This document shows positions 11,117-18,529 of a DNA stretch of 36,242 bases, piece by piece. Source of the stretch: Microbacteriaceae bacterium. GTDB taxonomy: Bacteria > Actinomycetota > Actinomycetes > Actinomycetales > Microbacteriaceae. The position numbers and the translations under genes are program-made. The stretch covers positions 1-36,242 of the forward strand of contig CANEXL010000007.1 of NCBI GenBank assembly GCA_947443745.1, given 5' to 3'. Below the pieces are notes generated by a model. The model saw nothing but the letters and a program-made list of their open reading frames with translations, did no database searches and was not told where the DNA came from. Positions within the stretch are counted from its first letter, which is position 1. Each line of letters starts with the position of its first letter.

Positions 11117-11614
11117 GTGCGAACACTCGTACTCAACGCAGGTTTTGAACCACTAGCAGTGGTGTCATTCCGCCGAGCTCTCATGCTCGTCATGAACAAC
11201 AAGGCCACCGTGATCAAGGCCGACTCTGAGCATCCGATTGAAGCGACAACGGGGCACTACGATCGCCCCACGGTCATCGTGCTCACCCGTTATGTGCGGA
11301 TTCCGTTTGCGCGTCGCGTGCCGCTCACCCGACGCGGCGTTTTGCGGCGGGATTCACAGCATTGCGCGTACTGCGCAAAGCCGGCCAACACCATTGACCA
11401 TGTCACGCCAAAATCTCGTGGTGGCGCCGAATCGTGGGAAAACCTCGTGGCCTGCTGTTTCAGGTGTAACAACATTAAGGGTGACCGCACGCCGGGTGAA
11501 ATGGGCTGGCGTTTGCTCGTCACGCCGCGCATGCCCTCGGGCCCATCATGGTTCGCCGTGGGCATTGAGCGCCGCGACGAGGCTTGGGAAGCGTTCCTCG
11601 CCCCCGCCGCGTAA
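11117..11614 (+). CDS. HNH endonuclease family protein
   Basis: A 165-residue protein with a zinc-ribbon HNH nuclease domain: Cys83-x2-Cys86, His95 in IDHVTPKSRGG, Asn109 in WENLV and Cys114-x2-Cys117 followed by NNIKGDR. The catalytic His and the metal-binding Asn are in place. The N-terminal 75 residues (LVLNAGFEPLAVVSFRRAL) belong to a common actinobacterial HNH family of unknown physiological role; there is no intron, phage or restriction context here. The start is GTG at 11117 with a GGGGG stretch about 11 bases upstream. tRNA-Arg follows 17 bases after the stop. Confidence 0.9.
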   Translation: MRTLVLNAGFEPLAVVSFRRALMLVMNNKATVIKADSEHPIEATTGHYDRPTVIVLTRYVRIPFARRVPLTRRGVLRRDSQHCAYCAKPANTIDHVTPKSRGGAESWENLVACCFRCNNIKGDRTPGEMGWRLLVTPRMPSGPSWFAVGIERRDEAWEAFLAPAA

Positions 11615-13425: not shown

Positions 13426-16400
13426 GTGTGGCGTCTTGATCAAAACTCCGACGACGAAAACTCGTCGGCCGAAACTGGCGGCTCGTCTTCCGAAGACGAG
13501 ATGGCCAGAATGAACGACGACCCCATCCGCCTCGACTCGGGGCCAACAGAACGGGTCACCACGGTGTCTATCACTTCCGCAACCTTCGCCGCTGGTTCTG
13601 CCGGTGGTTCCGCCGCTGGTTCTGCCGCGGGCGCTGCCTCTGGGTCACCGTCGGCAGCGTTTACCGGCATGAACGTCGCCGCCCCGACCTGGCAGCAGTG
13701 GCGCGATGAGCTCGCGCTGGTGGGCGGGACGTCGCCGCTCATCCAATTTGTCGACACGCCGCGCACCCGCATTGACCTCACCGCCATGCATCCTGGTGGC
13801 CTTCCTCAGTTCATCTCGGGCCAGTCCACGTTGCTGTCCAACCTCATCCGTGAAGATTTTGCACTTCGTAATGCCCGGCTCGCGGCTACGGCCATTGCGG
13901 CCAAAAGCGTCGAACTCCGGTCGATGCGCGGCATTGAATCGGTGTACCTCGCTATTGGTCTCGCGACGTGGGAGTTTGGCGGCCTCCGTTATTGTGGTCC
14001 CGTGTTGCTCCGCCCAATGTCGCTGCGCCGCTACGGCAAAGATTTTGAGGTCAAGCTCAACGGCCGCCCGTTCGTAAACCCGCAGCTCGTTCGGGCTCTC
14101 GAAAGCCAATTTCAGATTTCGCTGGACACGGATGCGTTCGTTGCCTTGGCGAACGATAACGGCACGTTCAAACCTCAGCCGGTCATTGATCGTCTCCTCG
14201 GCCTCACTCAGCACGTTTCGGGTTTTGGCGTGGAACCGCGACTCGTGGTGTCGACCTTCGCCGACGTGTCGGCGAGCATGGTGGCGGATGTGCGCCAGCT
14301 CGAGCACACGGTGCTCGATGCTTTGGCGGGTAATATTTCGGCGCGCTCCACCCTGAATAACGGTTTCATCGATGTGATTGCGACGGGGCAAGACGAGCGC
14401 CCTCCCGCGACCGATACCTTGCTGCTCGATGCGGATGCCGAGCAGGAACAAGTCGTCGCCGAAATTCTGGCCGGCAACAGCATGGTCGTGAAGACACTGC
14501 CGGGAACAGGGGGAACGCAGACCATCGTGAACGCGCTCGGCGCTCTCACAGCTCAGCACAAGCGCGTGCTCATTGTCGGCGCCCGCCGCTCGAGCCTGGA
14601 TTCCATTCTGCAGCGTCTCGAACAGGTGGGGCTCGACGGCCTGACTGTGTCTCCGCGCACGCTGCGCAAGGACTTGATCAGCGCGATCTTGCGCAACGAG
14701 AAGGCTACGCGCCCCAACGTGACCGACGTCGATGACGCTCTCATGCGCTTGCGCAAGGTGCTGGTGGATTACCGCGGCGCTCTGAGTCGTCGAGACGACG
14801 TTCTTGGCGTGACGGCTCTTGAGGCGCTCGAGGAGTTGTCACGGTTGAGCTTGCTGTCTACGGCTCCCTCCACAACGGCCCGGCTTCCGCGCCGCGCCAT
14901 CGAGGGACTGGCCGGTGGCCGCACGGAGGCTGCCCAGAGTTTGATTCACGCGGCGGCGCTCGGAGAGTTCCGCTACGGCCCCGATGATTCCCCTTGGTAC
15001 GGCGTGAACTTTTCCACGACGGAGGAGGCAACGGCCACCCACGAGCTGGCCAAGCGCATGCACCAGTCCGAATTGCCGCGCCTGCTCGAACGCGCTGACG
15101 AAGTCTTTGGCCGCACCCGGATGCGTCCGTTTGAGAACATGATCGAGCTGGGAATCTACATCCGGTTGCTGGTCGACATTCGCGAAACGCTCGACAAGTT
15201 CTTGCCCGCGGTATATGACCGTCCACTCACGGAGCTCATTACGGCGACGGCCGGGCGACGGGGAAGCGATATGTCGGGACCCAACCGACGCCGCCTACGC
15301 AAGTTGGCCGAGGAATATGTACGTCCCGGGGCGAATGTTTCGGACATGAATGAGTCGCTCACGCGTATTCAGCAGCAACGCGTGATGTGGCAGCGGTATG
15401 TTGTCGCCGGCGCGGTGCCCGAGGTGCCCGTGGGTGTGGGCGATTTGCAGACCGCGTACCAGCGCGTGATGAGCGATTTGACCCAGCTCGATATGCCGCT
15501 GGGGACCACCGGCTCGCGAGACTCGCTCGTGCAACTCGACATCGTGTCGCTGGCGAATAAGATCGCCTCCCTCGCCGCTGAGTCTGAGGTTTTGGCCAAC
15601 TTGCAGGAGCGCACGACGCTTCTGGCGTACCTTCGTGAGCTCGATTTGGACGTGCTGCTCGCGGACCTCTCGGCGCGTCACATACCCGAGGCGAACGTTG
15701 CCAACGAGCTCGAGCTCGCCTGGTGGCAGTCGGTGCTCGAGGGCATGCTGGTCGAGGACAAAGCGCTTCTGAGCGCTAACACCGCCATCTTGGATCGCTT
15801 GGAGTCAGACTTCCGCATGGTCGATGAGGCGCACGCCTCGGCTAACGGCCAGCTGCTGGCCGCGCGTCTGGCCGAGCTGTGGAAAATTGGACTGGTCGAC
15901 TGGCCCGATGAAGCCGACCGCTTGCGCCGCGCCCTTCGTGAGGACCAGATCACTCCCGCCGAGTTGTTCAGAATTGCCCCGAGACTCTCGCGTGCCATCT
16001 CGCCGATTTGGGCATGCTCGCCGTACGAGACCCACCTCATCCCCAAGGATGTCTCCTTCGATGCCGTCTTCCTGTTGGATGCTGGCGCCACCACCATCGC
16101 CGAGAACGCGGGCTCGATTCGTCGAGGTTCGGCCATCGTCGTGTTCGGGGATCCGGTAACCCAAACGCCGTCACGCTTCGAGACGGGTCTGGGCGAAGAC
16201 AGTAACGGCATGCTGCGCGCTCCCGTGGCGGATGCGGACGCGTGGCATTCCCGCTCGGCCCTCGCCAAGCTCTCCGAGGTCTTGACCGTGCGCACTCTCA
16301 CGCAGAGCTACCGCGCCGGTGGCGAAGATCTCGCCGATGTCGTGAACCGTCGTTTCTATGGCGGAAAGATTACGTCGCTGCCGTGGGCGGGCACCTTCCT

Positions 16401-17313
16401 TGGACACTCGAGTCTGCGCCTGCGCTACATCGCCGACGGCACCGGAATGCCGGATCCCGTGTCGGGCGCCATTGAAAGCGTGGATGCCGAGGTGGCGAAG
16501 GTTGTCGAGCTCGTGCTCGCCCACGCTGCCGAGCGTCCCACCGAATCGCTCATGGTCATCACCGCCAGCCCCAAGCACGCTGTTCGGGTGGAGCAGTCGG
16601 TGTTGTCGGCGTTTGCCCGCCGCAGCGATCTCGCCGAGTTCATTCTGGCCGAGCGCGCCGAACCGTTTGCCGTGATGACACTCGAGCAGGCCGTGGCGCA
16701 AAGCCGTGACCGGGTCATCTTCTCAATCGGGTACGGTCGCACGCCACATGGTCGCCTGCTCTCTGACTTTGGGGCGCTCGCCAAGCCCGGCGGCGATCGC
16801 CTGTTGGCGGTGGGCATGACGCGCGCGCGTCGCTCCATGGAAATCGTGTCCTGCTTCCGCCCCGGCGATATCGAAGAGAGTCGTCTGAGCGGTGGCATGC
16901 GAGCCCTAGCCGAGGTTCTTTCGGAGACAGACCGCGAGCTGTCGGTGGTGCGCGATGACACCGACGCTGAGCCCATGCTGATTGACCTTGCCGAGCGTCT
17001 GACGGCGCGCGGGATGACCGTCTCGCTCAACCACGGCGGAGAAATTGCCCTGGCCGCCTCGTTTAAGGGCCGTGCCGTAGCGGTCGAAACTGATGCCCTG
17101 CTGGCGCGGGGAAGCCTGCGCGAGTCACTGCGTTTGCGCCCCGAAATGCTGCGCCGCCTGGGCTGGCACTACCTGCGCGTGCACAGCTTCGAGCTGTTTG
17201 CCGACCCCGAGGCCGTTGCGGGTCGCATTGCGAGCCTGATCGGTGCCTCAACCGAAGACGACGTGTCGACCGGCCCGATTGTGCTGCCCATGCGCGCCGC
17301 CGCTCATGCCTAA
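13426..17313 (+). CDS. SF1 helicase-like protein with degenerate ATPase and nuclease-like C-terminus
   Basis: A 1295-residue protein with the plan of large SF1 (UPF1/RecD-like) helicases. The first 70 or so residues are low-complexity Ser/Gly/Ala. A DUF4011-like region precedes the ATPase. The Walker A position reads PGTGGTQT (359-366), where PGTGKTQT is expected, so the ATP-binding Lys is Gly363. The Walker B position reads LLDAGAT, with Asp885-Ala886 in place of Asp-Glu. Later motifs survive: GDP (908-910) and MTRAR (1131-1135). The last 100 residues resemble the MTES_1575-type restriction-endonuclease fold (LRRLGWHYLRVHS), with an acidic position apparently replaced (IALAA for IDLAV). The frame is intact over 3.9 kb with normal codon use, so it is a maintained protein, perhaps a non-hydrolysing DNA-binding factor. 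The GTG at 13426 is chosen from the leaderless promoter; an ATG at 13501 is the alternative. Confidence 0.85.
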   Translation: MWRLDQNSDDENSSAETGGSSSEDEMARMNDDPIRLDSGPTERVTTVSITSATFAAGSAGGSAAGSAAGAASGSPSAAFTGMNVAAPTWQQWRDELALVGGTSPLIQFVDTPRTRIDLTAMHPGGLPQFISGQSTLLSNLIREDFALRNARLAATAIAAKSVELRSMRGIESVYLAIGLATWEFGGLRYCGPVLLRPMSLRRYGKDFEVKLNGRPFVNPQLVRALESQFQISLDTDAFVALANDNGTFKPQPVIDRLLGLTQHVSGFGVEPRLVVSTFADVSASMVADVRQLEHTVLDALAGNISARSTLNNGFIDVIATGQDERPPATDTLLLDADAEQEQVVAEILAGNSMVVKTLPGTGGTQTIVNALGALTAQHKRVLIVGARRSSLDSILQRLEQVGLDGLTVSPRTLRKDLISAILRNEKATRPNVTDVDDALMRLRKVLVDYRGALSRRDDVLGVTALEALEELSRLSLLSTAPSTTARLPRRAIEGLAGGRTEAAQSLIHAAALGEFRYGPDDSPWYGVNFSTTEEATATHELAKRMHQSELPRLLERADEVFGRTRMRPFENMIELGIYIRLLVDIRETLDKFLPAVYDRPLTELITATAGRRGSDMSGPNRRRLRKLAEEYVRPGANVSDMNESLTRIQQQRVMWQRYVVAGAVPEVPVGVGDLQTAYQRVMSDLTQLDMPLGTTGSRDSLVQLDIVSLANKIASLAAESEVLANLQERTTLLAYLRELDLDVLLADLSARHIPEANVANELELAWWQSVLEGMLVEDKALLSANTAILDRLESDFRMVDEAHASANGQLLAARLAELWKIGLVDWPDEADRLRRALREDQITPAELFRIAPRLSRAISPIWACSPYETHLIPKDVSFDAVFLLDAGATTIAENAGSIRRGSAIVVFGDPVTQTPSRFETGLGEDSNGMLRAPVADADAWHSRSALAKLSEVLTVRTLTQSYRAGGEDLADVVNRRFYGGKITSLPWAGTFLGHSSLRLRYIADGTGMPDPVSGAIESVDAEVAKVVELVLAHAAERPTESLMVITASPKHAVRVEQSVLSAFARRSDLAEFILAERAEPFAVMTLEQAVAQSRDRVIFSIGYGRTPHGRLLSDFGALAKPGGDRLLAVGMTRARRSMEIVSCFRPGDIEESRLSGGMRALAEVLSETDRELSVVRDDTDAEPMLIDLAERLTARGMTVSLNHGGEIALAASFKGRAVAVETDALLARGSLRESLRLRPEMLRRLGWHYLRVHSFELFADPEAVAGRIASLIGASTEDDVSTGPIVLPMRAAAHA

Positions 17314-17551
17314 GGACACGACTCCCGAGCCAATGCCCTTTTCTGGGGTGAAAAAGAAGTCTCGCGTTTCGCGGCGGGTGCAGTGGACGCAGCCGGGCTC
17401 AACGGAGAACCCCGCAAGCTCCGACACGGAGGTTCCGGAGCGTGATCGGCCTGAGAATTGGGGCGAGCGCACATCCGACAAGAACTCGGGGAGCGGATCT
17501 AACAGTAACGACGAACAGCTCAAGCGCGACAAGCCGCCTCACTGGGGCTAG
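17306..17551 (+). CDS. Small hydrophilic protein, unknown function
   Basis: An 81-residue protein whose ATG overlaps the last 8 bases of the large helicase-like gene (ATGCCTAA), which points to translational coupling. It is basic at the N-terminus (VKKKSRVSRRVQW), low-complexity and probably disordered in the middle, and contains two related motifs, RPENWG and KPPHWG, the second at the very C-terminus. No membrane segment, signal peptide or known domain is visible. Placement suggests a co-expressed accessory of the helicase-like protein. Function not recognised. Confidence 0.6.
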   Translation: MPKDTTPEPMPFSGVKKKSRVSRRVQWTQPGSTENPASSDTEVPERDRPENWGERTSDKNSGSGSNSNDEQLKRDKPPHWG

Positions 17552-17573: not shown

Positions 17574-17897
17574 TTAGCTGGAGCTGGCGGAACCTGAGGA
17601 ACTCGACGATGTTGACGGTGCCGATGTGGTCGACGAAGCCGAGCTTGGGCTGCTCGAGGAAGTAGACGAGCTGGAGCTCGACTTTGCAGGCTTCGTCGGC
17701 TTGCCTGACGAGCCTGATTCCGAGCGGGAGTCGGTGCGGTAGAAACCCGATCCGTTGAATGTCACGCCGACCATGGCGAAAATCTTGCGAAGCTTGCCAC
17801 TGCACACGGGGCACACGGTGAGGGAGTCTTCGCTCAGTGCCTGCTGGATGTCGAACGCATTGTCACATTCGGTGCAGCGGTAGGAATAGGTTGGCAC
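17574..17897 (-). CDS. FmdB-type zinc-ribbon protein
   Basis: A 107-residue protein. Residues 1-50 form an FmdB (CxxC...CxxC) zinc ribbon with Cys8, Cys11, Cys29 and Cys32 and the typical opening MPTYSYRCTEC. The remaining half is almost entirely Ser with some Thr, Ala and Pro and is probably disordered. FmdB-domain proteins are widespread small zinc proteins, named from a putative formamidase regulator; their real role is unclear. The start is GTG at 17897 with CGGAG about 8-12 bases upstream. It lies 50 bases downstream of the 5-formyl-THF cyclo-ligase gene on the same strand and is probably co-transcribed. Confidence 0.9.
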   Translation of the reverse strand: MPTYSYRCTECDNAFDIQQALSEDSLTVCPVCSGKLRKIFAMVGVTFNGSGFYRTDSRSESGSSGKPTKPAKSSSSSSTSSSSPSSASSTTSAPSTSSSSSGSASSS

Positions 17898-17947: not shown

Positions 17948-18529
17948 CTAGAAGGTGATGAGGGCCGACGGGGTGATGACACCATCGACGGGCTGGTCGT
18001 GAATTTCGCGAGGGAGCTCGTCCACCAGCTCGTCGTCAAAAATGACGGCATAGACGGGTGGGCGCTTATCCATGGAGCCGAGGGTCTTGTCGAAGTAACC
18101 GCGACCCCAGCCCATGCGGGTGCCCTCTTTATCAACGGAGGAGGCGGGAGTAATGATGAGGTCGACATCGTTGATGGCTATCGGGCCCAGAAGCTCACCG
18201 GTGGGCTCGGGCAGGCCGTGGAGACCTTCGATTTCTTCGTCGGTGTCGTTGGCCACGGCCCAATCCAGCAGGCCGTCATCGCGGGAAACCGGCAACAGAA
18301 TGCGGATTCCCTGCTCGATCGCCCAGGTCATGAACGGGCGGGTCTCGGGCTCGGTGGGGCCGGCCAGATAACAGGAGAGGCTCTTGATTCCTCGGGCGGC
18401 AACGAGGTTCTTCAGGTGCTCCGTGATGAGTGCCGTGGTTTCATCCCGCACGAGCTGGGGCATTGCCCGGCGGCGCTCACGAATTTCGGCCCGGAGGGCT
18501 CTCTTTACGTCCACCACGTCTTCAGGCAT
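17948..18529 (-). CDS. 5-formyltetrahydrofolate cyclo-ligase
   Basis: A 193-residue enzyme of the MTHFS family, which uses ATP to convert 5-formyl-THF (folinate) to 5,10-methenyl-THF and so returns a storage or inhibitory folate to one-carbon metabolism. The family signature GWGRGYFDKTLG is at residues 140-151, and the N-terminal KRALRAEIRERRR is the usual basic helix. The length is normal. The ATG at 18529 is preceded by GGAG and, at 6 bases, by TAGACT, so both leadered and leaderless initiation are possible. The gene is divergent from galU with 70 bases between the two start codons. Confidence 0.94.
   Translation of the reverse strand: MPEDVVDVKRALRAEIRERRRAMPQLVRDETTALITEHLKNLVAARGIKSLSCYLAGPTEPETRPFMTWAIEQGIRILLPVSRDDGLLDWAVANDTDEEIEGLHGLPEPTGELLGPIAINDVDLIITPASSVDKEGTRMGWGRGYFDKTLGSMDKRPPVYAVIFDDELVDELPREIHDQPVDGVITPSALITF

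What the first reader, a model, noticed from the sequence alone, without database searches (positions are those of the whole stretch)
13426..17313. Giant helicase-like protein that has lost its ATPase signature residues
The SF1 Walker A lysine is Gly363 (PGTGGTQT), and the Walker B Asp-Glu appears as Asp885-Ala886. Motifs GDP and TRAR remain, and the C-terminal restriction-endonuclease-like domain also seems to lack an acidic residue. Yet the frame is intact for 1295 codons. This suggests a conserved pseudo-helicase with a structural or DNA-tethering role, possibly with the coupled 81-residue protein.
Basis: partly seen in the sequence, partly recalled or inferred. Interest (0 to 1): 0.65.

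Follow-up and report, generated by a model that had tools for sequence, protein, structure and literature searches.

The report
Widespread dead helicase with tail partner
Nearly all sampled bacteria of one actinobacterial order carry a giant helicase-shaped protein that in most of the sampled families has lost its ATP-splitting residues, yet which, where this was measured, is kept as strictly as a housekeeping enzyme and is usually paired with or fused to a small tail protein, which suggests a dead enzyme with an important unknown job.

Summary
The finding holds and is larger than stated. The 1295-aa ORF has a UPF1-type SF1 helicase fold (AlphaFold2, pLDDT 87.8; Ighmbp2 Z 20.4) followed by an MTES_1575-type nuclease-like domain. 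Position 363 is Lys in 0 of 107 Microbacteriaceae rows; 197 of 199 Microbacteriaceae and 243 of 248 order genomes have a match, mostly at one locus near fmdB-like and cyclo-ligase-like genes. Walker B needs re-registering: Leu884-Asp885, not Asp885-Ala886, replace Asp-Glu. In 124 aligned homologues, Walker A Lys and Walker B Asp-Glu are kept by exactly the same 12 rows (families f5, f18, f45); the two of these scanned match candidate-defence model PDC-S37 strongly. So a defence-type enzyme appears to have been silenced, at least twice, and kept: dN/dS 0.053 for one pair, equal to galU; present in 0.8-0.93-Mb genomes. The Lys-less P-loop is among the 0.3% most conserved windows in the family; nuclease acidic positions drift. 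The 81-aa gene overlaps the ORF by 8 nt; a C-terminal PPH[WY] tail follows or is fused in 102 of 108 loci (0 of 108 in controls). Likely role, inferred: a non-hydrolysing nucleic-acid scaffold with a docking tail. Biochemistry is untested.

The parts
13426..17313 (+). Pseudo-helicase ORF, 1295 codons (GTG start; true start possibly at Met26/Met29)
   Evidence: homologues; AlphaFold2 model of residues 80-1278, pLDDT 87.8
13678..14415 (+). N-terminal segment before RecA1 (DUF4011-like; aligned with the region before RecA1 in the UPF1/Ighmbp2 rows)
   Evidence: Pfam DUF4011 residues 146-224, E 0.031, below cut-off; the UPF1/Ighmbp2/Dna2 rows of VIA-align start at model residue 1-6
14500..14523 (+). 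P-loop PGTGGTQT, Gly363 in place of Lys
   Evidence: 0 of 107 Microbacteriaceae rows have Lys; window at the 0.3 percentile of conservation; DNA pattern at 14500
16075..16083 (+). Degenerate Walker B: Leu884 (for Asp), Asp885 (for Glu), Ala886
   Evidence: ungapped register against intact orthologues
16147..16170 (+). Motif III GDPVTQTP, Thr912 in place of Gln
16297..16320 (+). Motif IV LTQSYRAG, Arg963 kept
   Evidence: conserved window percentile 1.5
16810..16833 (+). Motif VI VGMTRARR, Arg1133/Arg1135 kept
16990..17235 (+). MTES_1575-type nuclease-like domain, residues 1189-1270; Asp1208->Ala and Arg-Asp 1234-1235->Ser-Leu
   Evidence: Pfam PF18741 E 4.3e-05, below cut-off; 40 of 40 members of A3 match it at E<=0.01
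17306..17551 (+). Coupled small gene, 81 aa, C-terminal DKPPHWG; overlaps the big ORF by 8 nt
   Evidence: family alignment; fused homologues
17574..17897 (-). Context: FmdB-like zinc-ribbon gene, convergent neighbour (name is my reading of the sequence, no family search)
17948..18529 (-). Context: 5-formyltetrahydrofolate cyclo-ligase-like gene, conserved neighbour (name is my reading, no family search)

Best explanation
The ORF encodes a vertically inherited pseudo-helicase found across an order. Its ancestor was a compact UPF1-type SF1 helicase fused to an MTES_1575-type nuclease, of the kind found in candidate anti-phage systems. At one chromosomal locus the ATP-hydrolysis residues were lost while the fold was kept (shown). 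The protein is under purifying selection (shown for one pair) and is linked to a small, probably disordered GWG...PPHW protein that is encoded just downstream or fused to its C-terminus (association shown by genome layout; physical contact inferred). I infer that it binds nucleic acid, perhaps with a nucleotide held but not hydrolysed in the retained pocket, and holds partner proteins through the tail: a scaffold or clamp, in the manner of other dead helicases, rather than a motor. Shown: residue loss, co-loss, conservation, synteny, predicted fold, coupling/fusion. Inferred: no ATPase, nucleic-acid binding, tail docking, cellular role.
For: Presence: 197 of 199 Microbacteriaceae genomes, 243 of 248 order genomes, 18 of which are Microbacteriaceae. 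Lys at 363 in 0 of 107 family rows; a [G/A] P-loop DNA pattern in 157 of 199 genomes (at least one of these hits is not in this gene) against 18 of 199 for the Lys version, whose places lie away from this locus. Of 124 ingroup rows, Lys363 in 12, Asp884+Glu885 in the same 12; 12-residue signature by family. Same locus: fmdB-like and/or cyclo-ligase-like gene in the stretch beside it in 24 of 31 loci and 34 of 40 loci of other families, seven Lys-bearing f5/f18 loci among them. dN/dS 0.053 against galU 0.053 and cyclo-ligase 0.078. Present in genomes of 0.8-0.93 Mb. P-loop, motif IV, III and VI windows at the 0.3, 1.5, 1.9 and 4.0 percentiles of conservation. Two Lys-bearing relatives score 784 and 819 bits on PADLOC PDC-S37; the window 301. 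UPF1-type fold. Tail: 102 of 108 non-redundant loci with at least 1200 nt downstream, 13 of them fused; controls on the opposite strand and inside the gene 0 of 108 each.
Against: No biochemistry. The P-loop is so conserved that nucleotide binding, or even hydrolysis by an unusual route, is not excluded; by contrast the Walker B and motif V windows are only at the 20 and 25 percentiles. No DNA-binding test exists. The AlphaFold2 model of a fused homologue leaves the tail at pLDDT 40-57, so no docking site is seen. No tail was found beside the gene in the 0.93-Mb genome (L281), and the tail family also exists in class genomes for which one search lists no big-protein match, so neither strictly needs the other. 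Two Microbacteriaceae and five order genomes have no match. dN/dS was measured on one pair with dS near or above saturation (0.92-1.73).
Confidence: 0.6

Rival explanations
1. The pocket is still working: the protein binds (or slowly hydrolyses) a nucleotide with other residues replacing the Lys and Asp-Glu, and acts as a nucleotide-gated switch.
For: Lys-less P-loop at the 0.3 percentile of conservation, Arg of motifs IV and VI kept, Asp885 in 106 of 107 rows. Twelve positions gained a conserved Lys/Arg in Microbacteriaceae relative to Lys-bearing rows, among them 797, 899 and 1096.
Against: Residue 363 itself takes nine residue types; Asp at 884 is absent from all 107 family rows; in f3, f4, f9, f10, f14 and f20 the P-loop itself has drifted, so nucleotide use is not general.
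Confidence: 0.22
2. RecC-like subunit: a dead helicase-nuclease that pairs with an active motor or nuclease encoded elsewhere and guides DNA to it.
For: Fold kept with both active sites degenerate, as recalled for RecC; tail peptide available for docking.
Against: Among the window genes tested as neighbours the recurrent ones are fmdB-, cyclo-ligase- and galU-like; no motor gene was seen, but other neighbours were not searched systematically.
Confidence: 0.2
3. Still an anti-phage protein, now working as a sensor or blocker without catalysis.
For: Closest models are anti-phage ones: ProA 278.6 bits, Hhe 131.1 bits, PDC-S37 301 bits.
Against: ProA and Hhe scores are far below their curated cut-offs; the gene is near-universal, at one locus, slow-evolving in the pair measured and present in 0.8-0.93-Mb genomes; the Lys-type P-loop pattern is patchy (18 of 199).
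Confidence: 0.12
4. Decaying pseudogene or sequencing artefact.
For: Catalytic residues missing in the window.
Against: dN/dS 0.053; no Lys in 107 of 107 family rows; open frame of 1295 codons.
Confidence: 0.01

Closest known systems
Hhe / ProA / PADLOC PDC-S37 type large helicase-nucleases
   Same: DUF4011-like, SF1 helicase and MTES_1575-like parts; two Lys-bearing orthologues (L092, L168) match PDC-S37 with 784 and 819 bits
   Different: Window: catalytic residues lost, 278.6 of 1500 and 131.1 of 2000 bits on the curated ProA and Hhe models, fixed locus, near-universal, extra coupled/fused PPHW tail
MTES_1575 of Microbacterium testaceum (Anantharaman et al. 2013, PMC3710099, passages seen)
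   Same: SF1 helicase plus Vsr-type REase; by its label the source of the Pfam domain name
   Different: MTES_1575 is a >2000-residue fusion with HEPN, transglutaminase and wHTH parts listed among conflict-system proteins; the window protein lacks that length and the catalytic residues
Large DUF4011 gene flanking P. aeruginosa core defence hotspot 1 (PMC10250203, passages seen)
   Same: A DUF4011 protein that is a core gene of a species (found in every isolate there)
   Different: Not compared by sequence here; marks a defence hotspot, which was not looked for at this locus
Deinococcus radiodurans PriA pseudohelicase (PMC4504706, abstract and outline seen)
   Same: Bacterial helicase that lost ATP hydrolysis yet is kept; binds DNA and, by the abstract, DnaB
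   Different: PriA, a replication-restart protein; here UPF1-type SF1 with a nuclease-like domain and no known role
RecC of RecBCD (recalled, no call)
   Same: Dead SF1 helicase fold with dead nuclease-like fold, exapted as a DNA-reading subunit
   Different: RecC is UvrD-like and works in a complex with active RecB/RecD; no such partner gene was seen here
UPF1 / Ighmbp2 / Dna2 / Senataxin helicases
   Same: Fold, tied top rows: Ighmbp2 4b3g_B Z 20.4 (506 aligned, rmsd 4.2), Dna2 5ean_A Z 20.0 (516, 4.3), Upf1 2xzp Z 19.7 (510, 5.1)
   Different: Those are ATP-hydrolysing enzymes (recalled); only 14-16% identity

Membership tests
SF1 (UPF1-type) helicase, active | Two RecA domains in the UPF1-type SF1 arrangement | tested here: met
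   AlphaFold2 model pLDDT 87.8; VIA-align Z 20.4 to Ighmbp2, 506 aligned, rmsd 4.2
SF1 (UPF1-type) helicase, active | Walker A Lys | tested here: not met
   Gly363; 0 of 107 family rows Lys
SF1 (UPF1-type) helicase, active | Walker B Asp-Glu | tested here: not met
   Leu884-Asp885
SF1 (UPF1-type) helicase, active | Motif III Gln and Arg of motifs IV and VI | tested here: inconclusive
   Gln lost (Thr912), Arg963, Arg1133 and Arg1135 kept
SF1 (UPF1-type) helicase, active | ATP hydrolysis and unwinding | not testable with these tools
   needs protein
Hhe / ProA anti-phage family | Curated score cut-off of the NCBIfam model | tested here: not met
   278.6 of 1500 (ProA), 131.1 of 2000 (Hhe) bits
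MTES_1575-type nuclease | Pfam PF18741 match | tested here: inconclusive
   24 bits, cut-off 38.2; 40 of 40 members of A3 match at E<=0.01
MTES_1575-type nuclease | Acidic and Arg-Asp positions as in intact orthologues | tested here: not met
   Ala1208, Ser1234-Leu1235; 12 of 12 Lys-bearing rows have Asp and Arg-Asp there
Pseudo-helicase (enzyme fold kept, catalytic residues lost, selection kept) | Loss fixed across a clade with purifying selection | tested here: met
   (one pair)
Pseudo-helicase (enzyme fold kept, catalytic residues lost, selection kept) | No measurable ATPase | not testable with these tools
   needs protein

The most novel reading that the evidence does not exclude
A defence-type helicase-nuclease was domesticated deep in the actinomycete tree, lost ATP hydrolysis (and later, in several families, its nuclease site) at least twice in parallel, and became a near-universal core protein of an order: a non-hydrolysing nucleic-acid scaffold whose working partner is the more widespread small protein with the GWG...PPHW tail, which sits next to it and was repeatedly fused to it. 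It would define an undescribed core protein-nucleic acid complex.
Probability: 0.5. Interest if true: 0.85.

Novelty: new variant of a known kind. Interest (0 to 1): 0.72.

Why it matters
A protein of some 1200-1500 residues with a match in 243 of 248 sampled genomes of an order, present even in 0.8-0.93-Mb genomes, has no Pfam or NCBIfam match above cut-off in the window and looks like a dead enzyme in 16 of the 18 order families sampled in the alignment, with a 17th mixed. Because Lys-bearing orthologues survive at the same locus in f5 and f18, the conversion of an enzyme into a scaffold can be studied step by step (in f6 the ATPase site is dead while most nuclease residues remain). The small PPHW tail family gives a concrete handle for finding what the complex holds.

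Tried and rejected
A docking site for the tail on the body: low confidence, nothing claimed. An upstream partner shared by the tail genes of genomes without the big protein: none seen by eye in 12 loci, except that two f45 loci share one ORF; of 16 such tail loci 8 have an fmdB-like gene in the same stretch, one of them not convergent. phmmer against PDB sequences gave one chance-level match, a nanobody at E 0.79. One search prints Walker B one column off; one search is the corrected table. My first tail count (105 of 120) was biased, because loci were also let in for being fused, and it labelled fused cases 'separate'; one search sorts 23 of the 105 as fused; one search repeats the count only on loci with enough downstream sequence, with controls, and is the one to use (102 of 108; the six misses are L136, L140, L149, L151, L176, L281). 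The C-terminal fragments L263 and L264 were dropped there. The tree (FastTree, 129 rows; seven truncated or disrupted rows and most Microbacteriaceae left out) may suffer long-branch attraction of the degenerate sequences, so only 'at least two losses' is stated, the one inside f18 resting on node supports 0.987 and 0.804. Families f13 and f17 of the order are not in the tree. The synteny of the f45 Lys-bearing row (L211) was not examined. Papers: the ten searches showed no description of this protein or the tail among the rows listed; that is all that is claimed. PMC7448276 was seen as a search listing only; PMC9122126, PMC10250203 and PMC3710099 as passages; PMC4504706 as abstract and outline. 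RecC is recalled.
Full report
Observation. The ORF 13426-17313(+) is open for 1295 codons from a GTG. Residues 359-366 read PGTGGTQT with Gly363 where a Walker A Lys is expected. A single match exists in the window's own genome, which is 88% complete. The nearest named relative is Alpinimonas psychrophila at 89% identity. Pfam finds only sub-threshold matches: MTES_1575 (residues 1189-1270), AAA_11, DUF4011, AAA_12 and three weaker ones; NCBIfam gives ProA 278.6 bits and Hhe 131.1 bits, far below their cut-offs of 1500 and 2000. phmmer against PDB sequences gave only a chance-level nanobody match, E 0.79.

Family-wide state. A match is present in 197 of 199 Microbacteriaceae genomes, in 85 of 85 genera (G094 and G183 have none, again). 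In the first alignment (61 rows with the window) residue 363 is G 55, A 3, S 1, R 1 (the R comes from L055, a disrupted row) and one gap. With further loci, fetched to reach genera missed by the DNA pattern below, 107 rows cover the P-loop and none has Lys: G 72, Y 8, L 7, A 6, S 5, V 5, I 2, R 1, T 1. Of 107 rows that cover Walker B, 885 is Asp in 106 and Gly in one; 884 is V 66, L 25, A 10, M 4, I 2 (some genomes occur twice). A degenerate DNA pattern for P-G-x-G-[G/A]-T-Q-T occurs in 157 of 199 genomes and a Lys version in 18 of 199. The 19 listed places of the Lys version lie away from the big gene's own place; the doubtful case, G173, has its Lys in a separate 2128-aa frame on another contig. 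One listed G/A match (G153) is not in this gene, whose P-loop there is PGCGYTQT.

Register of Walker B. Between FD and GD the window (FDAVFLLDAGATTIAENAGSIRRGSAIVVFGD) and intact orthologues (e.g. L093) are equally long, so Leu884 takes the place of the Mg-binding Asp, Asp885 that of the catalytic Glu, Ala886 that of the Ala in DEAS.

Order-wide state. 243 of 248 genomes of the order sample, over 20 family labels and including 18 Microbacteriaceae, have a match; some weak matches may be paralogues. Loci from 40 genomes of other families: an fmdB-like and/or cyclo-ligase-like gene lies in the same stretch (11-16 kb) in 34 of 40 (L151, L155, L157, L158, L159 and L165 lack both), and in 24 of 31 named loci (of the other seven L061 has full flanks, the rest are short or cut by contig ends). 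Seven Lys-bearing loci (L141, L142, L167, L168, L169, L171, L172) are among the 34. In the 129-row alignment (124 ingroup rows) Lys363 occurs in 12 rows, Asp884 with Glu885 in exactly the same 12; the motif III Gln is kept in 11 of these 12 and also in 7 Lys-less rows. The 12 belong to f5 (2), f18 (9) and f45 (1, outside the order). Of the 18 order families in this alignment, 16 have only Lys-less rows, f18 is mixed and f5 has only Lys-bearing rows; some families have a single row. The nuclease positions are intact in the 12 (Asp1208 12 of 12, Glu1221 11 of 12 with one Asp, Asp1223, Arg1234 and Asp1235 12 of 12). Elsewhere losses differ: at least 10 of 17 f6 rows keep Asp, Glu, Asp and Arg of the nuclease while the ATPase site is dead; Microbacteriaceae lose Asp1208 and Arg-Asp1234-1235; f3, f4, f9, f10, f14 and f20 have drifted P-loops. 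In f38, outside the order, Lys is Arg. Rooted on five large relatives of 1579-2355 aa (L237-L241; one lacks the P-loop stretch in the alignment, one is cut before the nuclease), the tree puts most Lys-less rows in one clade with support 1.0 and a second group among Lys-bearing rows of f18, so at least two losses; long-branch attraction may distort this.

Selection. Between the window and Alpinimonas dN/dS is 0.053 for the big ORF, against 0.053 galU-like, 0.078 cyclo-ligase-like, 0.063 and 0.056 for two other neighbours (Nei-Gojobori; dS 0.92-1.73, so ratios are rough; for the small gene pS was saturated and no ratio came out). Over 53 Microbacteriaceae rows (eight redundant or truncated rows of 61 left out) the Lys-less P-loop is at the 0.3 percentile of 8-residue windows, motif IV 1.5, motif III 1.9, motif VI 4.0; Walker B is at 20 and motif V at 25; the nuclease acidic stretches are at 55 and 70, but RESLRLRP is at 1.0. 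So the P-loop of the dead pocket is under extreme constraint, the nuclease acidic site is not, and part of the nuclease-like domain still matters. Reduced genomes carry the gene: G015 (927,303 bases, 44% identity), G249 and G372 (0.8-0.9 Mb, 25-33%).

Structure. AlphaFold2 with 46 rows: residues 80-1278, mean pLDDT 87.8, pTM 0.76. The tied top VIA-align rows are Ighmbp2 4b3g_B (Z 20.4, 506 aligned, rmsd 4.2), Dna2 5ean_A (20.0, 516, 4.3), Upf1 2xzp (19.7, 510, 5.1); Foldseek's best is Senataxin 8ftm (E 3.1e-14, but rmsd 38.9 over a 1108-column alignment, perhaps because domains are placed differently). This is the UPF1-type SF1 fold; the matches span model residues 3-1093, and the C-terminal nuclease-like part was not tested alone.

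The small gene. The 81-aa ORF (17306-17551) overlaps the big one by 8 nt. Its relatives downstream of other homologues have the form basic N-terminus, acidic D-D-T-D-x-G-W-G-E, then N-D-x-R-L and a C-terminal PPHW, PPHWG or PPHY. On 108 non-redundant loci with at least 1200 nt downstream, a frame ending in PPH[WY] on the same strand within 1500 nt is found in 89 and a fused tail in 13, none in 6; the same test gives 0 of 108 on the opposite strand and 0 of 108 inside the gene. In all 23 fused homologues were sorted out of 105 loci, in f1, f6, f10, f14, f16, f18 and f19. Start overlaps of 4 or 8 nt are common. Pfam and NCBIfam know none of four members (one query had a few wrongly typed residues). 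The tail is more widespread than the big gene: 114 of 197 class genomes carry it against 58 of 197 with any match to the big protein, among them genomes for which one search lists no big-protein match (e.g. G445, G449, G455); 8 of 16 such tail loci looked at have an fmdB-like gene in the same stretch (one of these 16, from G443, has its big gene on another contig). In the model of a fused homologue the tail is at pLDDT 40-57, so where it docks is open.

Interpretation. Two Lys-bearing orthologues score 784 and 819 bits on PADLOC's candidate defence model PDC-S37, the window 301. The simplest history is a defence-type helicase-nuclease that settled at a housekeeping locus next to the tail gene, lost ATP hydrolysis and was kept for its fold. 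What the fold does is inferred: nucleic-acid binding scaffold, perhaps nucleotide-bound, docking partners by the tail. Known analogues are D. radiodurans PriA, reported to have lost ATPase but to keep DNA and DnaB binding (PMC4504706, abstract), and RecC (recalled). MTES_1575 is a much larger fusion (PMC3710099, passages). Another DUF4011 gene is reported as a core gene beside a defence hotspot of P. aeruginosa (PMC10250203, passages); it was not compared. No paper on this protein was seen in the ten searches listed under Tried and rejected. The names fmdB, cyclo-ligase and galU for the neighbours are my reading of their sequences, not a family search.

Noticed in passing
window 17306-17551 and L177-L206, L265-L282: The GWG...PPHW small protein is an orphan family found in 114 of 197 class genomes, also where no big-protein match is listed; its own function is unknown.
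   Followed up: partly
window 17574-17897: FmdB-like zinc-ribbon protein with a Ser-rich tail, by eye similar in layout to M. tuberculosis Rv0991c, a redox-regulated chaperone (PMC7448276, search listing only; the likeness is recalled).
   Followed up: no
L119-L135 (f38): Outside the order, f38 homologues have Arg in place of the Walker A Lys (PGTGRTQT) and mostly Glu-Asp at Walker B; in several a PPHW frame starts some 85-630 bases downstream without overlap.
   Followed up: partly
L077-L088 (f6): ATPase residues lost but nuclease Asp/Glu/Asp mostly kept: a possible intermediate with a live nuclease on a dead helicase.
   Followed up: partly
18 of 199 Microbacteriaceae genomes, e.g. G173 C1:14365: Patchy Lys-type P-loop hits at other places; the one examined lies in a 2128-aa frame related to the window protein.
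   Followed up: partly
window 11117-11614: Small ORF that reads by eye like an HNH endonuclease (CxxC...CxxC; no family search); relatives lie near the locus in L031, L054, L056, L061, L151 and L152.
   Followed up: no
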